NCBI RefSeq assembly: GCF_000426045.1
Contig: NZ_AUEP01000012.1
Location: 1 to 64,000, forward strand
Source of the DNA: Marmoricola sp. URHB0036
Lineage (GTDB): Bacteria > Actinomycetota > Actinomycetes > Propionibacteriales > Nocardioidaceae
Reading direction: 5' to 3'
DNA length: 64,000 nt
Both the position numbers and the translations under genes were made by a program. Under the pieces are notes generated by a model that ran no database searches, was not told the DNA's origin, and was given only the letters and a program-made list of their open reading frames with translations. This document shows, piece after piece, positions 3,368 through 37,729 of the stretch (position 1 is the stretch's first letter; the number at the start of each line of letters is the position of its first letter).

Positions 3368-3384
3368 CCTGCAGCTAACCTGAC
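3368..3384 (-). promoter_or_regulatory. 11-bp direct-repeat operator, DUF347 operon
   Basis: On the minus strand: GTCAGG (3379-3384), five bases, TGCAGG (3368-3373), then 10 nt, a -10-like hexamer GAGACT (3352-3357), 7 nt and the ATG. The spacing matches the other sites assigned to the OmpR-type regulator encoded at 14977-15666. Confidence 0.6.
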
Positions 3385-9063: not shown

Positions 9064-9080
9064 CCTGACCGTCACCTGAC
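9064..9080 (-). promoter_or_regulatory. 11-bp direct-repeat operator, glycolipid operon
   Basis: Minus strand: GTCAGG (9075-9080), five bases, GTCAGG (9064-9069), 10 nt, hexamer TCTACT (9048-9053), 6 nt, GTG at 9041. Half-sites are identical to each other. Confidence 0.65.
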
Positions 9081-9517: not shown

Positions 9518-9534
9518 CCTGACCGTCGCCTGAC
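9518..9534 (-). promoter_or_regulatory. 11-bp direct-repeat operator, cupin gene
   Basis: Minus strand: GTCAGG (9529-9534), five bases, GTCAGG (9518-9523), 10 nt, hexamer GATCCT (9502-9507). Here a leader of about 25-30 nt with a ribosome site follows. Confidence 0.6.
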
Positions 9535-9613: not shown

Positions 9614-9630
9614 CCTGACCGCAACCTGAT
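9614..9630. promoter_or_regulatory. 11-bp direct-repeat operator, cupin/PAP2 intergenic
   Basis: CCTGAC (9614-9619) and CCTGAT (9625-9630) are 11 bp apart, with the orientation of the cupin-side site. It lies 53-69 bases upstream of the PAP2 start but is inverted relative to that gene, so which promoter it serves is open. Confidence 0.5.
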
Positions 9631-12448: not shown

Positions 12449-12465
12449 CCTGTCTGTAGCCTGAC
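12449..12465 (-). promoter_or_regulatory. 11-bp direct-repeat operator, spermidine-synthase-like gene
   Basis: Minus strand: GTCAGG (12460-12465), five bases, GACAGG (12449-12454), then 10 nt to a weak hexamer GACGGT (12433-12438). One half-site deviates by one base. Confidence 0.5.
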
Positions 12466-12523: not shown

Positions 12524-12540
12524 GTCAGGAGACGTGCAGG
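12524..12540 (+). promoter_or_regulatory. 11-bp direct-repeat operator, phosphoesterase lipoprotein
   Basis: Plus strand: GTCAGG (12524-12529), five bases, TGCAGG (12535-12540), 10 nt, hexamer GATCCT (12551-12556), then a short leader with a GGAG site before ATG 12591. The hexamer is the same as at the cupin gene. Confidence 0.6.
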
Positions 12541-13609: not shown

Positions 13610-14980
13610 TCACCTGGAGATGTCAGGTCTCGCTGCGCACGCCGCGTCCGTGGGCAGGAGCAGGCGCATGGTGGCGCCGCCCTCGGCGTCCACGAGGTCG
13701 AGTCGGCCCCTGTTGCGTTCGGCCAGTCCCCGGGCGATCGACAGCCCCAGACCGTTGCCCCCGTCACGGGCGCGAGAGCTCTGCGCGCGGTAGAAGCGGT
13801 CGAAGATCCGGTCGCGCTGCTCGATCGGAACCCCGGGCCCATCATCGAGGACCACGAGGGCGGCCCACCCACCGGAGCACTCGACCGTCAGCTGCACCCG
13901 GGTTCGGGCGTGCACAACAGCGTTGTCGAGCAGGTTCCGCACCACGCGACGGACGTCGTCGGCGTTGGCGTGCGCCGGAGCCGCGGACACTCCGGTGGTG
14001 TCCACGTGCACGAGCCCGCGGGTTCGAGCGCGGGCAGCCTCCTCCAGGACGAGGCTGTCGAGATCGATGGCGGCCGGCTCGGGTGACACGTCGGCGTCGA
14101 TGGATGCGACCACCAGGAGCTCCCCCACGAGACGCTCCATGTCAGCGGTGGCGCCGAGTACCTCCGCCCTGAGCAGGTCGGTATCGATGTTGCGCGGTCG
14201 CGAGAGTGCCACTTCCAGGGCGACCCGCTGCGCTGCGAGAGGGCTTTGCAGGTCGTGCGACACGTCGGCCACGAAGTCACGCTGACGCCGTACGGCGACA
14301 TCGAGGCGCTCCAGCAAGGCGTTCATCGTCGCTGCCAGGCGGCCGACCTCGTCCTCGACGCCGTCGCCCGCCACCCGGGTGTGGAGGTTCTGCTCGGAGA
14401 TGCGATCGACCTCGGCCCTGATCCGGTCCAGCCGGCCGATGGTGCGTCCGAGCAGGTACCAGATGACGAGGCCGAGGAGGATGACCACGACTGGTACGCC
14501 GAACCACAGGGCGCGCCGCAGCGCTGCCGACGCCTCCGAGACGGCCTCCAGGCTGTCTCCCACGTACACCGTCACCGTGCCCTCGGGACTGGGCCCTGCG
14601 GCGTACCAGAAGCGATAGCTCTCGATCTCCTGGTCGTCGGCGGCCCGGAACGTGCTCGTCCGCAGCTGCTGGCCCGCCTGAAGCTCGGCGACCGGGGGCT
14701 TGCCCGTGATGTTCGGCGACGCCGCCAGCACTCTCCCGCCCGGTCCGACCACCTGCGCGACACCGTTGTCGTCGACGTTGCGCAAGGTCGAGGGCAGATC
14801 ACCCGTGCGCGCCAGTGCGCGCAGGTCGTCGACCCTGGAGCGAGACAGGTGGTCGGACGCGTCGGTCAGCCGGCCCTCCAGCGTCGAGACGAGAAGCAGC
14901 GCTCCGACCGCGAGCAGCGCCGCGATCGCGAGCGTCCCGAGCACGGTCGCCCGCGCGCGCAAGCTCAACCGCCTCTTCAT
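13610..14980 (-). CDS. Sensor histidine kinase (HAMP type)
   Basis: A 456-residue membrane kinase. TM1 at about residues 13-33, an extracytoplasmic sensor of about 120 residues, TM2 near 165-185, a HAMP domain, then HisKA with the phospho-acceptor in FVADVSHDLQSPL (near residue 245) and an HATPase domain with NLLDNAVVH (N box), VLDDGPGVP (G1) and GNGLGLSIARG (G2). It phosphorylates the response regulator whose stop overlaps its ATG (ATGA). The acceptor motif has DLQ where many kinases have ELR/DLR. Neighbouring genes suggest it senses an envelope signal; the PepSY protein across the intergenic region may modulate it. Confidence 0.9.
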   Translation of the reverse strand: MKRRLSLRARATVLGTLAIAALLAVGALLLVSTLEGRLTDASDHLSRSRVDDLRALARTGDLPSTLRNVDDNGVAQVVGPGGRVLAASPNITGKPPVAELQAGQQLRTSTFRAADDQEIESYRFWYAAGPSPEGTVTVYVGDSLEAVSEASAALRRALWFGVPVVVILLGLVIWYLLGRTIGRLDRIRAEVDRISEQNLHTRVAGDGVEDEVGRLAATMNALLERLDVAVRRQRDFVADVSHDLQSPLAAQRVALEVALSRPRNIDTDLLRAEVLGATADMERLVGELLVVASIDADVSPEPAAIDLDSLVLEEAARARTRGLVHVDTTGVSAAPAHANADDVRRVVRNLLDNAVVHARTRVQLTVECSGGWAALVVLDDGPGVPIEQRDRIFDRFYRAQSSRARDGGNGLGLSIARGLAERNRGRLDLVDAEGGATMRLLLPTDAACAARPDISR

Positions 14981-15666
14981 CGGTCCTCGTCCGTCCTGTC
15001 GTCCACGACGCGGTACCCCACCATGCGAACCGTCTGCAATGACGCCCGCCCGAACGGCTCGTCGATGCGCTGTCGAAGCTGGCGCACGTACACCTCGACG
15101 ATGTTGGGATGACCGTCGTAGGCGAAGTCCCACACATGCTCGAGAATCGCCGCCTTGCCCAGCACCTCCTCGGCGTGCCGCATCAAGAACTCCAGCAGGG
15201 CGAACTGACGAGGCGTCAGTTCCACCGGGCTTTCCCCGCGCCACACGCGGTGCACAGCAGGGTCGAGCCGCAGGTCACCCACCTCGAGGACGGTCGGCCG
15301 CTCGCGGCCCCCTCGCCGCACGAGTGCGCGCAGGCGCGCGGTCAGCACCATGAACGAGAACGGCTTGGAGAGGAAGTCGTCGGCGCCGGCATCCAGCGCC
15401 CGCGCTTCCTGCTCTGGCCCGCTGCGCGCCGTGAGCATGAGGATCGGAGTCCAGTCCCCGGTGTCGCGGCGTCGCGCACACAACTCGTCCCCCGCCAGAC
15501 CGGGGAGCATCACGTCCACGACCATCGCGTCGTAGGCGTTCTCGGCCGCAAACCACTCTCCATCGGTGCCGGTCAGGGCGACGTCGACCGCGTATCCCTC
15601 ACCCTCCAGACCGCGACGGAGCGCGGCCGCCAGCTGCTTGTCATCCTCGACCACCAGGATCCGCAC
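14977..15666 (-). CDS. OmpR/PhoB-family response regulator
   Basis: A 229-residue regulator: receiver domain with EDD at 7-9, phospho-acceptor Asp51 (VVDVMLPG) and Lys in FLSKPF near 101, then a winged-helix DNA-binding domain ending in VRMVGYRVV. OmpR-type proteins bind tandem half-sites about one helical turn apart, and three such half-sites lie directly upstream. The start is GTG, 6 nt after the hexamer GATCGT and with no ribosome site, so the transcript is probably leaderless and autoregulated. It is the best candidate regulator for the repeats found at eight further places from 3.3 to 16.9 kb. Confidence 0.9.
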   Translation of the reverse strand: MRILVVEDDKQLAAALRRGLEGEGYAVDVALTGTDGEWFAAENAYDAMVVDVMLPGLAGDELCARRRDTGDWTPILMLTARSGPEQEARALDAGADDFLSKPFSFMVLTARLRALVRRGGRERPTVLEVGDLRLDPAVHRVWRGESPVELTPRQFALLEFLMRHAEEVLGKAAILEHVWDFAYDGHPNIVEVYVRQLRQRIDEPFGRASLQTVRMVGYRVVDDRTDEDR

Positions 15667-15688
15667 CGACCCACGATCGCACTGCTGC

Positions 15689-15716
15689 GCTGAAGCCGCG
15701 CTGAACGCCGACTGAA
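15689..15716 (-). promoter_or_regulatory. Triple 11-bp direct-repeat operator, two-component system
   Basis: Three half-sites read TTCAGT, TTCAGC, TTCAGC on the minus strand (15711-15716, 15700-15705, 15689-15694), each 11 bp apart, then 10 nt, hexamer GATCGT (15673-15678), 6 nt and the GTG start. Confidence 0.7.
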
Positions 15717-15725
15717 CAACGCGTC

Positions 15726-15742
15726 TTCAGGCTGCCTTCAGC
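15726..15742 (+). promoter_or_regulatory. 11-bp direct-repeat operator, PepSY gene
   Basis: TTCAGG (15726-15731), five bases, TTCAGC (15737-15742), oriented toward the PepSY gene. Together with the triple site it forms a divergent control region with half-sites pointing outward from a 9-base centre. Confidence 0.6.
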
Positions 15743-15804
15743 ACCTGTCCCACAGGCTGGCGGGACGAGGCAAACCGCGGACAGAAGACGGAAGAGGAGT
15801 GTCC

Positions 15805-16128
15805 ATGCGCAAGCGAGCATTTGGCGTGGCTGCTGGGGCTGGAGTGGTCCTCGCAGTAGCCGGCGGTGGCATCGCCGTCGCCACGGGCGGGGACGACGGG
15901 CCGGCGAGCCACCAGTACACCCAGAAGCAGGCCGACGCCGCGACGAAGGCCGCGCTCGAAGCGACCGGCGGCGGCAGAGCCAACAGCGTCGAGACCGACA
16001 GCGAGAACGGCGCAACCTACGAGGTCGAGGTGACCAAGCCCAACGGGTCGACCGTCGACGTACGACTCGACGACGCCTACCACGTGGTGGTCATCGAGGG
16101 CGACAGCGAGGACGCAGGCGGAAACTGA
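15805..16128 (+). CDS. Small PepSY-domain envelope protein
   Basis: A 107-residue protein with an N-terminal signal or anchor helix (residues about 7-27) and one PepSY-like domain: KQADAATKAALEATGGGRANSVE followed by TYEVEVTKPNGSTVDVRLD and a VVVIEGD strand. PepSY domains are found in secreted protease propeptides and in small proteins beside two-component systems, where they may bind or inhibit a partner outside the membrane. ATG 15805 is chosen over GTG 15799 because a GAGGAG site ends 5 nt before it. It is divergent from the response regulator and shares its control region, so it is probably part of the same feedback circuit. Confidence 0.8.
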   Translation: MRKRAFGVAAGAGVVLAVAGGGIAVATGGDDGPASHQYTQKQADAATKAALEATGGGRANSVETDSENGATYEVEVTKPNGSTVDVRLDDAYHVVVIEGDSEDAGGN

Positions 16129-16168: not shown

Positions 16169-16894
16169 TCACGGGCGGTGGACGGCCACCACCTGGAATG
16201 TCTCGCTGCCACCCGACATGTCGCGTTCCTTCACGATGCCGACTCCCGGGGCATAGAGCTTCAGCGACAGGACACCGGGCTCCAGTCGCGTCCACTCGAA
16301 GCTGCGCACCACGTGGCCGAAGGTCCCCATCGGTGTCTTCGTGCGCGTGGAGTTGCCCACGATCCAGGCTTGGTCCTCCGCGTGGCCGCGGAGGAACTCC
16401 TGGCGGAAGGCCTGCGTCGGGTGCGGGCGGGCCGGCATGATCATGCCGGCTCTCGCTCCGTGGAGACCCGCCTGCCAGGAGCCTTCGCGGGACTCGAGGT
16501 GGCCCTTCTCGTCGTACGTCGCAGTCGCCTCGCCGAAGTACCAGACGTTGCCCGCGCCGTCGGCGGCGTACCAATCGGTCGTGCGCTCCGCCAGCCTTCG
16601 GTTGTCTCGGCGGAGCACGTCGGTGACCACGCGGGTCCGGACGCCCTCGATCACCTTGGTCCGATAGGTGACGTGCACGCGTTCGCGAAGGTGCTCGCCC
16701 TCGTCCGTGCCGCGCAAGATGGTCGTGGTGCCGGGGCGCAGCGGGAACCAGGGGTTGGCTTGCGGGTGCGCGAAGTCGGCCCGGGCGATCTGTGTCGAGC
16801 CCGCCTGAGTGCCGGCGGCGACGGTGGCGGCAGCGGGTCCGATGCCCACGGCTGCCGCGACCGTGAGCAGAAATGCAGTGGTGGTTCTCGTCAT
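16169..16894 (-). CDS. Secreted protein of unknown function
   Basis: A 241-residue exported protein with a clear signal peptide (residues 1-27, Ala-rich cleavage region). The mature part has repeated beta-strand features: NPWFPLRPGTTTILRGTDEGE, ADGAGNVWYFGE and SLKLYAPGVGIVKERD. I recognise this layout from conserved actinobacterial secreted proteins but know no function. The ATG lies 6 nt after TAGGTT, a good -10 element, and there is no ribosome site, so it is leaderless. The promoter has the local direct-repeat operator, which places it in the envelope regulon. Confidence 0.75.
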   Translation of the reverse strand: MTRTTTAFLLTVAAAVGIGPAAATVAAGTQAGSTQIARADFAHPQANPWFPLRPGTTTILRGTDEGEHLRERVHVTYRTKVIEGVRTRVVTDVLRRDNRRLAERTTDWYAADGAGNVWYFGEATATYDEKGHLESREGSWQAGLHGARAGMIMPARPHPTQAFRQEFLRGHAEDQAWIVGNSTRTKTPMGTFGHVVRSFEWTRLEPGVLSLKLYAPGVGIVKERDMSGGSETFQVVAVHRP

Positions 16895-16916
16895 CGAACC
16901 AACCTAGGACCGGGCG

Positions 16917-16933
16917 CCTGTAGCCAGCCTGAA
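16917..16933 (-). promoter_or_regulatory. 11-bp direct-repeat operator, secreted protein
   Basis: Minus strand: TTCAGG (16928-16933), five bases, TACAGG (16917-16922), 10 nt, TAGGTT (16901-16906), 6 nt, ATG. Same geometry as the glycolipid-operon and response-regulator promoters. Confidence 0.65.
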
Positions 16934-17004
16934 GAGGTTCTTGCAAGAGTGTTCAACAGGCCGTCGAACTCGGCGGTTGCTCCGCCGACCTCCGCGGTCG
17001 TTGG

Positions 17005-36796: not shown

Positions 36797-37729
36797 GTGA
36801 CAGCCCCGGCCAAGCCCGTCCGCGTGTTCATAGGTTCGTCGACCGAAGGCCGCGAAATCGCCCTGAACCTTCAAGAGCAACTGGAGAGAACCAGCGGTTG
36901 CGAGGTTGACCTTTGGGAACACGTTTTCGACCCGTCGGGCTATGCGCTGCCGAGTCTCCTCGCTGCCGCTGCCAAGGTCGACTTCGCAGTATTGGTTGCG
37001 ACACCTGACGACACCACAATCAGTCGAGGAGTGGCCCAGGAGTCTGTGCGCGACAACATCATCCTGGAATTTGGGCTTTTCGCCGGGGCGCTTGGACTCG
37101 ATCGAACCTATCTACTCCCGACCGGCGACGACGTTAAGTTGCCGTCCGATGTCGTCGGCCTAACGCGGCTGAGCTACAGGGAGCGGACGGATGGCCGGAT
37201 ACCCGCAGCGCTAACAAGCGCCGTCCTCTCCATCAAGAGCCAGCTCGACGCGCTCGGCCCCAGAACTCGTGCGGTCACACCGCAAGCGAACCCGGACGCG
37301 CTCACCGAAGCCGAGTTTGACGAGGCCGAAACGATCATTCACGAAAAGCGACGGAGTTACGGCACGGCGAACGCCTTCTATCGAAGTTTTGAGGCCGGAA
37401 GGTGGCTAAAGGGATTCAAGCTTCCACCGCGCTTCAGAACTCCATCAGCGGAGATGCAGCTGAAAGAACGCTGGATCCGAGAAGCCGACTTCACGCGAAC
37501 CTGGGATCACAGCAACACGGTCTTTATGCAACTTCAATTGGTGACAAGCCACATCACTACGGAAGAGCTCGATCATATCCTCGACCTGCCAACTACGGAT
37601 GATTACGGAAACGACCAGCAAGCAGGACTAGATATCTTCCTGCAATATGTTCAAAAGAACAACCCAGTAATTCTCTCCCAGAAGGCTATCGAGCGGCTCC
37701 AGGGATTTGAGAATGGCGGAACTTCGTAG
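36797..37729 (+). CDS. TIR-like nucleotide-binding domain protein (CAP12/Pycsar TIR type)
   Basis: A 310-residue protein. Residues about 8-145 match the TIR-like nucleotide-binding family (PF10137): VRVFIGSSTEGREIALNLQEQL, VDFAVLVATPDD, and RDNIILEFGLFAGALG with the conserved Glu expected to be catalytic. Such domains degrade NAD+ when triggered and act in CBASS, Pycsar and stand-alone defences. The C-terminal about 150 residues (KRWxREAD-type helices, VTSHITTEELDHIL) are unknown and may sense the trigger. No cyclase or SAVED partner is adjacent. The gene is visibly richer in A+T than its neighbours, a sign of transfer. Confidence 0.8.
   Translation: MTAPAKPVRVFIGSSTEGREIALNLQEQLERTSGCEVDLWEHVFDPSGYALPSLLAAAAKVDFAVLVATPDDTTISRGVAQESVRDNIILEFGLFAGALGLDRTYLLPTGDDVKLPSDVVGLTRLSYRERTDGRIPAALTSAVLSIKSQLDALGPRTRAVTPQANPDALTEAEFDEAETIIHEKRRSYGTANAFYRSFEAGRWLKGFKLPPRFRTPSAEMQLKERWIREADFTRTWDHSNTVFMQLQLVTSHITTEELDHILDLPTTDDYGNDQQAGLDIFLQYVQKNNPVILSQKAIERLQGFENGGTS

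What the first reader, a model, noticed from the sequence alone, without database searches (positions are those of the whole stretch)
15667..15804. Divergent control region with outward-pointing half-sites
Seen: three half-sites face the regulator gene and two face the PepSY gene, all on an 11-bp register within each group. This would let one regulator tune both genes with different strength and gives a likely feedback loop through PepSY.
Basis: partly seen in the sequence, partly recalled or inferred. Interest (0 to 1): 0.5.

Follow-up and report, generated by a model that had tools for sequence, protein, structure and literature searches.

The report
Two-way switch for a bacterial sensor
A short stretch of DNA between two genes carries a five-part landing pattern by which a bacterial regulator very probably switches on its own genes, the gene of a small partner protein and a third gene nearby; the same pattern recurs beside relatives of these genes in many actinobacteria, so it is a real and testable control element, though of a broadly familiar kind.

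Summary
Confirmed and extended. Five exact TTCAG half-sites lie at the stated place: three pointing at an OmpR-type regulator gene (15690-15716, - strand), two at a PepSY gene (15726-15741, + strand), on an 11-bp register; 0 of 20,000 shuffles gave even two such pairs. Of 80 regulator homologues, 40 have exact TTCAG-N6-TTCAG within 200 bp upstream; 59 letter permutations average 0.1. Of 46 exact pairs, 44 have a -10-like xAnnnT exactly 11 nt on, here CAGGCT and GATCGT. In other genomes the signature follows PepSY and third-gene relatives that sit elsewhere; among 92 regulators the exact pair occurs in one group only. Best reading: the regulator activates its own operon, PepSY and a predicted half-barrel protein. 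Feedback of PepSY on the kinase is inferred from Vibrio DbfQ (PMC12714742, passages); unequal strength is untested. Against: 16 of 40 PepSY loci lack the signature. The kind is known; this operator was not seen in ten paper searches.

The parts
14977..15666 (-). OmpR/PhoB-family response regulator, GTG start, 229 aa
   Evidence: Response_reg 83.2 bits and Trans_reg_C 80.9 bits; ORF
13610..14980 (-). sensor histidine kinase, overlapping the regulator stop codon; HAMP, HisKA, HATPase_c
   Evidence: Pfam on 13610-15004; start ATG 14980 read
15690..15716 (-). three TTCAG half-sites facing the regulator: 15712-15716, 15701-15705, 15690-15694
   Evidence: shuffles
15673..15678 (-). -10-like hexamer GATCGT, 11 nt after the last half-site and 6 nt before GTG 15666 (leaderless mRNA predicted)
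   Evidence: spacing test
15726..15741 (+). two TTCAG half-sites facing PepSY: 15726-15730, 15737-15741
15753..15758 (+). -10-like hexamer CAGGCT, 11 nt after the second half-site
15805..16128 (+). small PepSY protein, 107 aa, with a hydrophobic N-terminus by eye
   Evidence: NF051432 PepSY_MTB 113.8 bits (cut-off 60); Pfam PepSY 24.2 bits (cut-off 24); profile of relatives matches solved 2kgy E 1.2e-16 and UipA 7ath E 3.7e-5
16901..16934 (-). third array CTTCAG-N5-CTACAG-N11-TAGGTT (one mismatch), 6 nt before ATG 16894
   Evidence: second-ranked place (E 0.126) in the own genome with a profile trained without this genome
16169..16894 (-). third target, convergent with PepSY: 241 aa, signal-like N-terminus by eye, predicted beta half-barrel; no Pfam or NCBIfam family
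   Evidence: model pLDDT 83.5; 3fzx Z 13.4, 4fvs Z 13.2, 6ntr Z 11.5

Best explanation
The region is a back-to-back pair of regulator-dependent promoters. The phosphorylated OmpR-type regulator binds head-to-tail TTCAG half-sites (11-bp register) that take the place of the -35 element and recruit RNA polymerase to a -10 element 11 nt downstream. In one direction it raises its own regulator-kinase operon (three half-sites, leaderless start), in the other the PepSY gene (two half-sites); a separate copy 1.2 kb away drives a predicted half-barrel protein. Shown by sequence comparison: half-sites, -10 spacing, the arrays before all three genes, their conservation and link to this regulator group. 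Inferred: that this regulator is the binder, that it activates rather than represses, and that PepSY in turn restrains the kinase, as DbfQ does in Vibrio, so that positive autoregulation is balanced by an induced brake.
For: Exact TTCAG-N6-TTCAG within 200 bp upstream in 40 of 80 regulator homologues against a mean of 0.10 (at most 3) for 59 letter permutations; of spacings N0-N19 the others give 0 except N5 (27 loci) and N16 (23), part of a longer Streptomyces-type array, and N3, N15, N17 (1 each). 44 of 46 exact pairs have A-N3-T at spacing 11. The exact 12-base signature occurs 44 times in 24,000 bp upstream of the regulators and 5 times in the other 627,010 bp, all 5 before PepSY (L057, L058, L062) or third-gene relatives (L054, L057). 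All 41 exact-motif regulators of 92 fall in one group of 60 rows; of the 32 rows outside, 0 have the exact pair and 1 has it with one mismatch. Of 12 other regulator-like genes of this genome printed none shows the exact pair (for L196 the match starts at residue 36, so its stretch is not truly upstream). PepSY loci found by an HMM, not through the regulator: 24 of 40 examined have the signature, 23 exactly. A matrix trained only on other genomes ranks the three sites first in the window (31.0, 23.2, 20.4; next 13.9; reversed control 12.1).
Against: No binding, transcript or mutant data. With a profile trained without this genome the regulator-side site is matched only in part at rank 11 (E 2.4), and the second-ranked site has E 0.126. 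16 of 40 PepSY loci lack the signature, and 9 of these 16 score over the family's 60-bit cut-off. 13 of the 60 regulators in the motif group show no pair within 200 bp even with one mismatch (one of them, L057, has the array before PepSY instead). Two of the three -10 elements lack the usual first T. By Pfam only 11 of 42 divergent proteins scanned are PepSY.
Confidence: 0.86

Rival explanations
1. The arrays are bound by the regulator but work as repressor sites, shutting both promoters.
For: Both arrays lie close to the predicted starts of transcription, and regulators of this family can repress; CutR is reported to do so at several promoters (PMC12802291, passages).
Against: The arrays end 11 nt before the -10 in 44 of 46 cases, the place of a -35; two of the three -10 hexamers here are GAnnnT/CAnnnT rather than TAnnnT, as expected of promoters that need help; by eye there is no separate -35 (no promoter scan was run). 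BqsR activates from a like arrangement (PMC4682146, passages and section 7).
Confidence: 0.08
2. Another regulator of the cell, for example a paralogue, owns these sites, and their place beside this regulator is secondary.
For: The genome gives 14 matches to this regulator, itself included, and a second, similar 11-bp-register box, GTCAGG-N5-GTCAGG (71 places with up to 1 mismatch against 23 for the control).
Against: The exact motif is confined to this regulator's group among 92 rows; none of the paralogue stretches printed has it; the three best sites in the window are the three promoters here; GTCAG signatures are rare beside motif-bearing relatives (1 in 40 loci).
Confidence: 0.04
3. The repeats form a hairpin (17-nt arms, 82% complementary) that acts by structure, not as an operator.
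For: the repeat finder lists inverted arms 15700-15716 and 15726-15742.
Against: Neither predicted transcript spans both arms; of 33 PepSY loci scanned whole, 23 have exactly one signature place, 2 have two and 8 none, so a facing array is usually absent.
Confidence: 0.02

Closest known systems
DbfQRS of Vibrio cholerae (PMC12714742, passages)
   Same: Small secreted PepSY protein encoded beside a two-component pair; the paper reports positive autoregulation and says such neighbourhoods are more than 60-fold above chance, in several phyla.
   Different: dbfQ lies upstream in the same predicted operon; here PepSY is divergent with its own array. Restraint of the kinase is shown there and only inferred here.
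BqsRS of Pseudomonas aeruginosa (PMC4682146, passages and section 7)
   Same: Operator of two pentamers 6 bp apart; in the promoter dissected the last pentamer overlaps the -35 and extra upstream pentamers add output; PepSY proteins are encoded beside the kinase (PMC12714742, passages).
   Different: Pentamer TTAAG there, TTCAG here; 432 candidate operators with up to 2 mutations are reported there, while here three places stand out.
UipA and UipRS of Microbacterium (review PMC8963506, passages; the primary paper is not held)
   Same: Actinobacterial two-component pair beside a PepSY protein; the PepSY profile matches solved UipA at E 3.7e-5.
   Different: UipA has tandem PepSY domains and binds uranium; no operator appears in the passages read; identity of UipR with this regulator was not tested, and PepSY proteins of L062 and L033 did not match UipA up to E 1.
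TcrA system of mycobacteria (PMC8965865 Table 2 and PMC10743970, passages)
   Same: The PepSY family model is named PepSY_MTB and the closest solved chains are 2kgy and 2lra; that these are the protein encoded next to TcrA is recalled, not from a call.
   Different: Gene-by-gene orthology with TcrA was not tested; TcrA is listed with two kinase genes, here there is one.

Membership tests
OmpR/PhoB-family two-component system | Receiver domain plus winged-helix Trans_reg_C, with an adjacent HAMP-HisKA-HATPase kinase | tested here: met
   these five domains over their Pfam cut-offs
NF051432 PepSY_MTB proteins | Score over the curated cut-off of 60 bits | tested here: met
   113.8 bits
Heavy-metal CzcR/SilR/CopR regulators and their kinases (TIGR01387, TIGR01386) | Score over the curated cut-offs 279.2 and 292.55 | tested here: not met
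   201.2 and 168 bits
PepSY two-component module (DbfQRS/BqsPQRS kind) | PepSY gene within a few genes of kinase and regulator | tested here: met
   relatives
PepSY two-component module (DbfQRS/BqsPQRS kind) | PepSY binds the kinase sensor domain and restrains it | not testable with these tools
   needs a binding or phosphorylation assay
BqsR operator | TTAAG-N6-TTAAG | tested here: not met
   the third base differs: TTCAG; the spacing is the same
CutR operator | TAWATAAA (PMC12802291, passages) | tested here: not met
   not seen in 15667-15804 on reading
YmcC/LolA/RseB-type half-barrel fold, for the protein 16169-16894 | Fold match of the predicted model | tested here: inconclusive
   3fzx Z 13.4, 4fvs 13.2, 6ntr 11.5, LmcA 9.3; LolA 8.4 and RseB 8.1 lie among unrelated barrels such as porins at 8.5-8.7; no sequence family
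UipRS-UipA | Tandem PepSY domains with uranium/iron binding | tested here: inconclusive
   one PepSY stretch here; profile match to UipA E 3.7e-5, single sequence E 0.11; metal binding not testable
TcrA (Rv0602c) | Orthology of regulator and split kinase | not tested
   no named mycobacterial locus was compared

The most novel reading that the evidence does not exclude
An actinobacterial envelope-sensing circuit in which one regulator induces two exported proteins, a PepSY protein and a half-barrel protein, that together set the kinase: PepSY holds it off, while the half-barrel binds lipid or lipoprotein and releases it, a two-key sensor reminiscent of RseB but attached to a two-component system.
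Probability: 0.12. Interest if true: 0.75.

Novelty: new variant of a known kind. Interest (0 to 1): 0.5.

Why it matters
It supplies a precise, conserved operator (CTTCAG-N5-CTTCAG-N11-xAnnnT) for a PepSY-linked two-component family of actinobacteria, for which none turned up in ten paper searches of an open-licence library. It defines a small candidate regulon of three promoters and points to an uncharacterised half-barrel protein as a recurring partner (relatives in 5 of 80 regulator loci, and 14 of 33 PepSY loci). It makes the PepSY feedback idea directly testable. Related regulators with CTCA repeats at the same 11-bp step (7 of 21 loci of a neighbouring set) may offer a natural series for reading how OmpR-type regulators change specificity.

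Tried and rejected
Wider regulon: with up to 2 mismatches the full pattern gives 44 places in the genome against 38 for the reversed control and the half-site pattern 153 against 296, so none is claimed. The four one-mismatch places other than 16901 were looked at and not pursued. A cluster of near-sites at 37422-37475 lies inside an ORF and was dropped as chance. CutR was rejected because its reported operator is TAWATAAA.

The GTCAGG-N5-GTCAGG box was considered as a degenerate site of the same regulator and set aside: 1 such signature in 40 motif-positive loci, 2 in 33 motif-negative ones with one mismatch. Of 30 fetched of its 71 genome places, 5 have A-N3-T at spacing 11.

Mended steps: one search looked for a divergent regulator by a regular expression that proved too strict, replaced by phmmer; one search also placed L209 wrongly, as that contig is cut short, but the scan of all of L209 has no signature. 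Divergent ORFs chosen by length were replaced by codon-position GC. The first profile R1 included the window's own sites; R2, without them, is less favourable and is the one to trust. A model of the PepSY protein was not made, as solved relatives exist. Rows dropped: of 23 loci I took 13 (left out: the window's own, 7 second stretches of genes already taken, L042, L047) plus all 28 new loci; L039 was too short. In one search, L201 and L205 were left out as fragments.

Full report
WHAT IS THERE. Between the regulator start (GTG 15666, - strand) and the PepSY start (ATG 15805, + strand) lie CTGAA at 15690, 15701 and 15712 and TTCAG at 15726 and 15737. Read in the direction of the gene each group faces, all five are TTCAG, and neighbours within a group are 11 bp apart. 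Of 20,000 shuffles of the 138 bp none had two TTCAG pairs in this register, and no 5-mer reached the observed three. The window-wide scan has its only three perfect pairs here, though with up to 2 mismatches the window as a whole (28 places) is not above shuffles (mean 23).

THE PROMOTERS. Each array is followed after 11 nt by a -10-like hexamer: GATCGT (15678-15673) towards the regulator, with GTG 6 nt later, and CAGGCT (15753-15758) towards PepSY. Over the window and its relatives, with up to one mismatch in the half-sites, hexamer position 2 is A in 22 of 24 regulator-side and 40 of 44 divergent-side sites, and position 6 is T in 22 of 24 and 39 of 44. Among exact pairs of the 80 relatives 44 of 46 have A-N3-T at spacing 11, against at most 6 at any other spacing from 4 to 24. 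The arrays thus stand where a -35 would be, which argues for activation. The short distance to GTG 15666 predicts a leaderless transcript.

A THIRD TARGET. A copy CTTCAG-N5-CTACAG-N11-TAGGTT at 16934-16901 (-) precedes ATG 16894 by 6 nt; this gene runs towards PepSY. A matrix trained on 46 sites from other genomes ranks 15725 (31.0), 15673 (23.2) and 16901 (20.4) first in the window, the next being 13.9 and the best in the reversed window 12.1. In the whole genome the perfect 12-base signature occurs only at the first two; the third is one of five with one mismatch. A profile built without this genome puts 15725 first (E 0.007) and the third site second (E 0.126), but matches the regulator-side site only in part, at rank 11 (E 2.4); this is the weakest point. 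With the window's sites included the three rank first to third.

CONSERVATION WITH THE REGULATOR. Of 80 homologues from genome contigs (84% to 54% identity; the best 80 of more), 40 have an exact pair within 200 bp upstream: 10 in the regulator's sense, 36 in the other, 6 in both. Permuting the letters gives 0.10 loci on average, at most 3. Spacings N5 (27 loci) and N16 (23) also appear, as part of a longer array seen mainly in Streptomyces and Kitasatospora; N3, N15 and N17 once each. On a tree of 92 regulators (the window, 80 homologues, 11 paralogues of this genome) all 41 exact-motif rows lie in one group of 60 (support 100/99), with 13 lacking the pair and 6 having it with one mismatch; of the 32 rows outside, none has it exactly and one (L114) with one mismatch. 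Upstream stretches printed for 12 further regulator-like genes of this genome show no exact pair (the stretch for L196 is not truly upstream). In a neighbouring set of 21 loci the commonest repeat is CTCA-N7-CTCA, the same 11-bp step, in 7: a lead only.

THE SITE FOLLOWS THE GENES. In the 80 loci the exact signature occurs 44 times in the 24,000 bp upstream of the regulators and 5 times in the other 627,010 bp. All five precede a PepSY gene (L057, L058, L062) or a relative of the third gene (L054, L057). In L057 PepSY lies directly upstream of the regulator on the same strand and the array stands before PepSY. A separate set of PepSY genes was found with the NF051432 model in 24 genomes of the genus (12 with a match) and 296 of the class (90 with a match). 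I examined 41 fetched loci, one too short: 24 of 40 have the signature, 23 exactly. Over the family's 60-bit cut-off it is 23 of 32, below it 1 of 8. The many matches without a fetched locus were not examined. In one unnamed genus the loci show kinase, array, PepSY, third-gene relative in one direction, with the end of a regulator gene before the kinase in four of them; in L213 the array precedes the third gene, with PepSY behind it. Against a strict rule: 16 of the 40 lack it, and the divergent gene is often another. By Pfam 11 of 42 divergent proteins scanned are PepSY; an iterated search adds weaker PepSY-like ones in Streptomyces and Kitasatospora; others are small proteins in Streptosporangiaceae and Pseudofrankia or, in Kutzneria and Nocardia, an ABC ATPase.

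THE THIRD PROTEIN. Relatives lie in 5 of the 80 regulator loci, two of them (L079, L116) outside the motif group, and in 14 of 33 PepSY loci. So it recurs but is not constant: none was found in the flanks held for the close relatives L055 and L056. It aligns with 17 relatives and matches no Pfam or NCBIfam family convincingly (best Pfam E 0.03) and no solved chain by sequence up to E 1. An AlphaFold2 model (6 sequences, mean pLDDT 83.5, residues 1-33 uncertain) is mostly beta. Best matches are 3fzx (YmcC-like exported protein, Z 13.4, 175 residues, rmsd 4.0), 4fvs (lipoprotein, Z 13.2) and 6ntr (DUF1849, Z 11.5), then LmcA 9.3; LolA 8.4 and RseB 8.1 are no better than porins and autotransporter barrels at 8.5-8.7. 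A shared fold does not show function.

HOW IT MOST LIKELY WORKS. Shown by comparison: operator, spacing, three arrays, linkage. Inferred: binding by this regulator and activation. The nearest worked example is BqsR, an activator with TTAAG-N6-TTAAG; in one dissected promoter the last pentamer overlaps the -35, pentamers 3 and 4 are needed and 1 and 2 add output (PMC4682146, section 7). By analogy the third regulator-side half-site may boost autoregulation. For PepSY the nearest example is DbfQ, whose loss raises DbfR phosphorylation, with positive autoregulation of the operon and interface mutants raising output (PMC12714742, passages). By analogy PepSY here would be an induced brake. Neither analogy is tested here. 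UipA, a uranium-binding PepSY protein beside the UipRS pair in Microbacterium (review PMC8963506, passages), suggests a metal or cation signal; the protein here looks acidic, but metal binding was not tested.

NOVELTY. Known kind: PepSY-linked two-component systems and tandem-pentamer operators. Not seen in the listings and passages of ten searches of an open-licence library: this operator, or the half-barrel protein as a target. Most listed papers were not opened. A ChIP-seq set that includes Rv0602c (TcrA) is used in PMC10312376 (passages); whether its source reports this motif I did not see.

Noticed in passing
window 3368-3384 (-), 9064-9080 (-), 9518-9534 (-), 9614-9630 (-), 12449-12465 (-), 12524-12540 (+): A second 11-bp-register box, GTCAGG-N5-GTCAGG, stands near starts of several genes (a YbhN-like membrane protein and a cupin by eye; a Pfam phosphoesterase); 4 of these 6, which I picked from 17, have xAnnnT 11 nt on. 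In the window the 17 are not above shuffles (mean 12.7), but genome-wide 71 places with up to 1 mismatch stand against 23 for the control, one before an UppP-like ORF by eye. Probably another regulator's box.
   Followed up: partly
L195 (regulator at C3:381918) with site C3:381827-381859 (-): A mixed box GTCAGG-N5-TTCAGG lies upstream of a distant OmpR-type paralogue; that one may own the GTCAGG box.
   Followed up: no
many Streptomyces and Kitasatospora loci among L078-L128, about 35-75 bp upstream of the regulator: A four-part array CTGAA-N6-CTGAA-N5-CTGAA-N6-TTCAG replaces the two separate arrays, with a 10-bp step in the middle.
   Followed up: no
divergent genes of the Streptosporangiaceae and Pseudofrankia loci among L063-L091: The divergent gene is not PepSY but other small proteins, exported by eye; one of the 42 divergent proteins scanned matched CopK (E 5e-5).
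   Followed up: no
divergent proteins of Streptomyces/Kitasatospora and Glycomyces loci: The PepSY-like targets carry His-rich or Asp-rich stretches, which may suggest cation binding.
   Followed up: no
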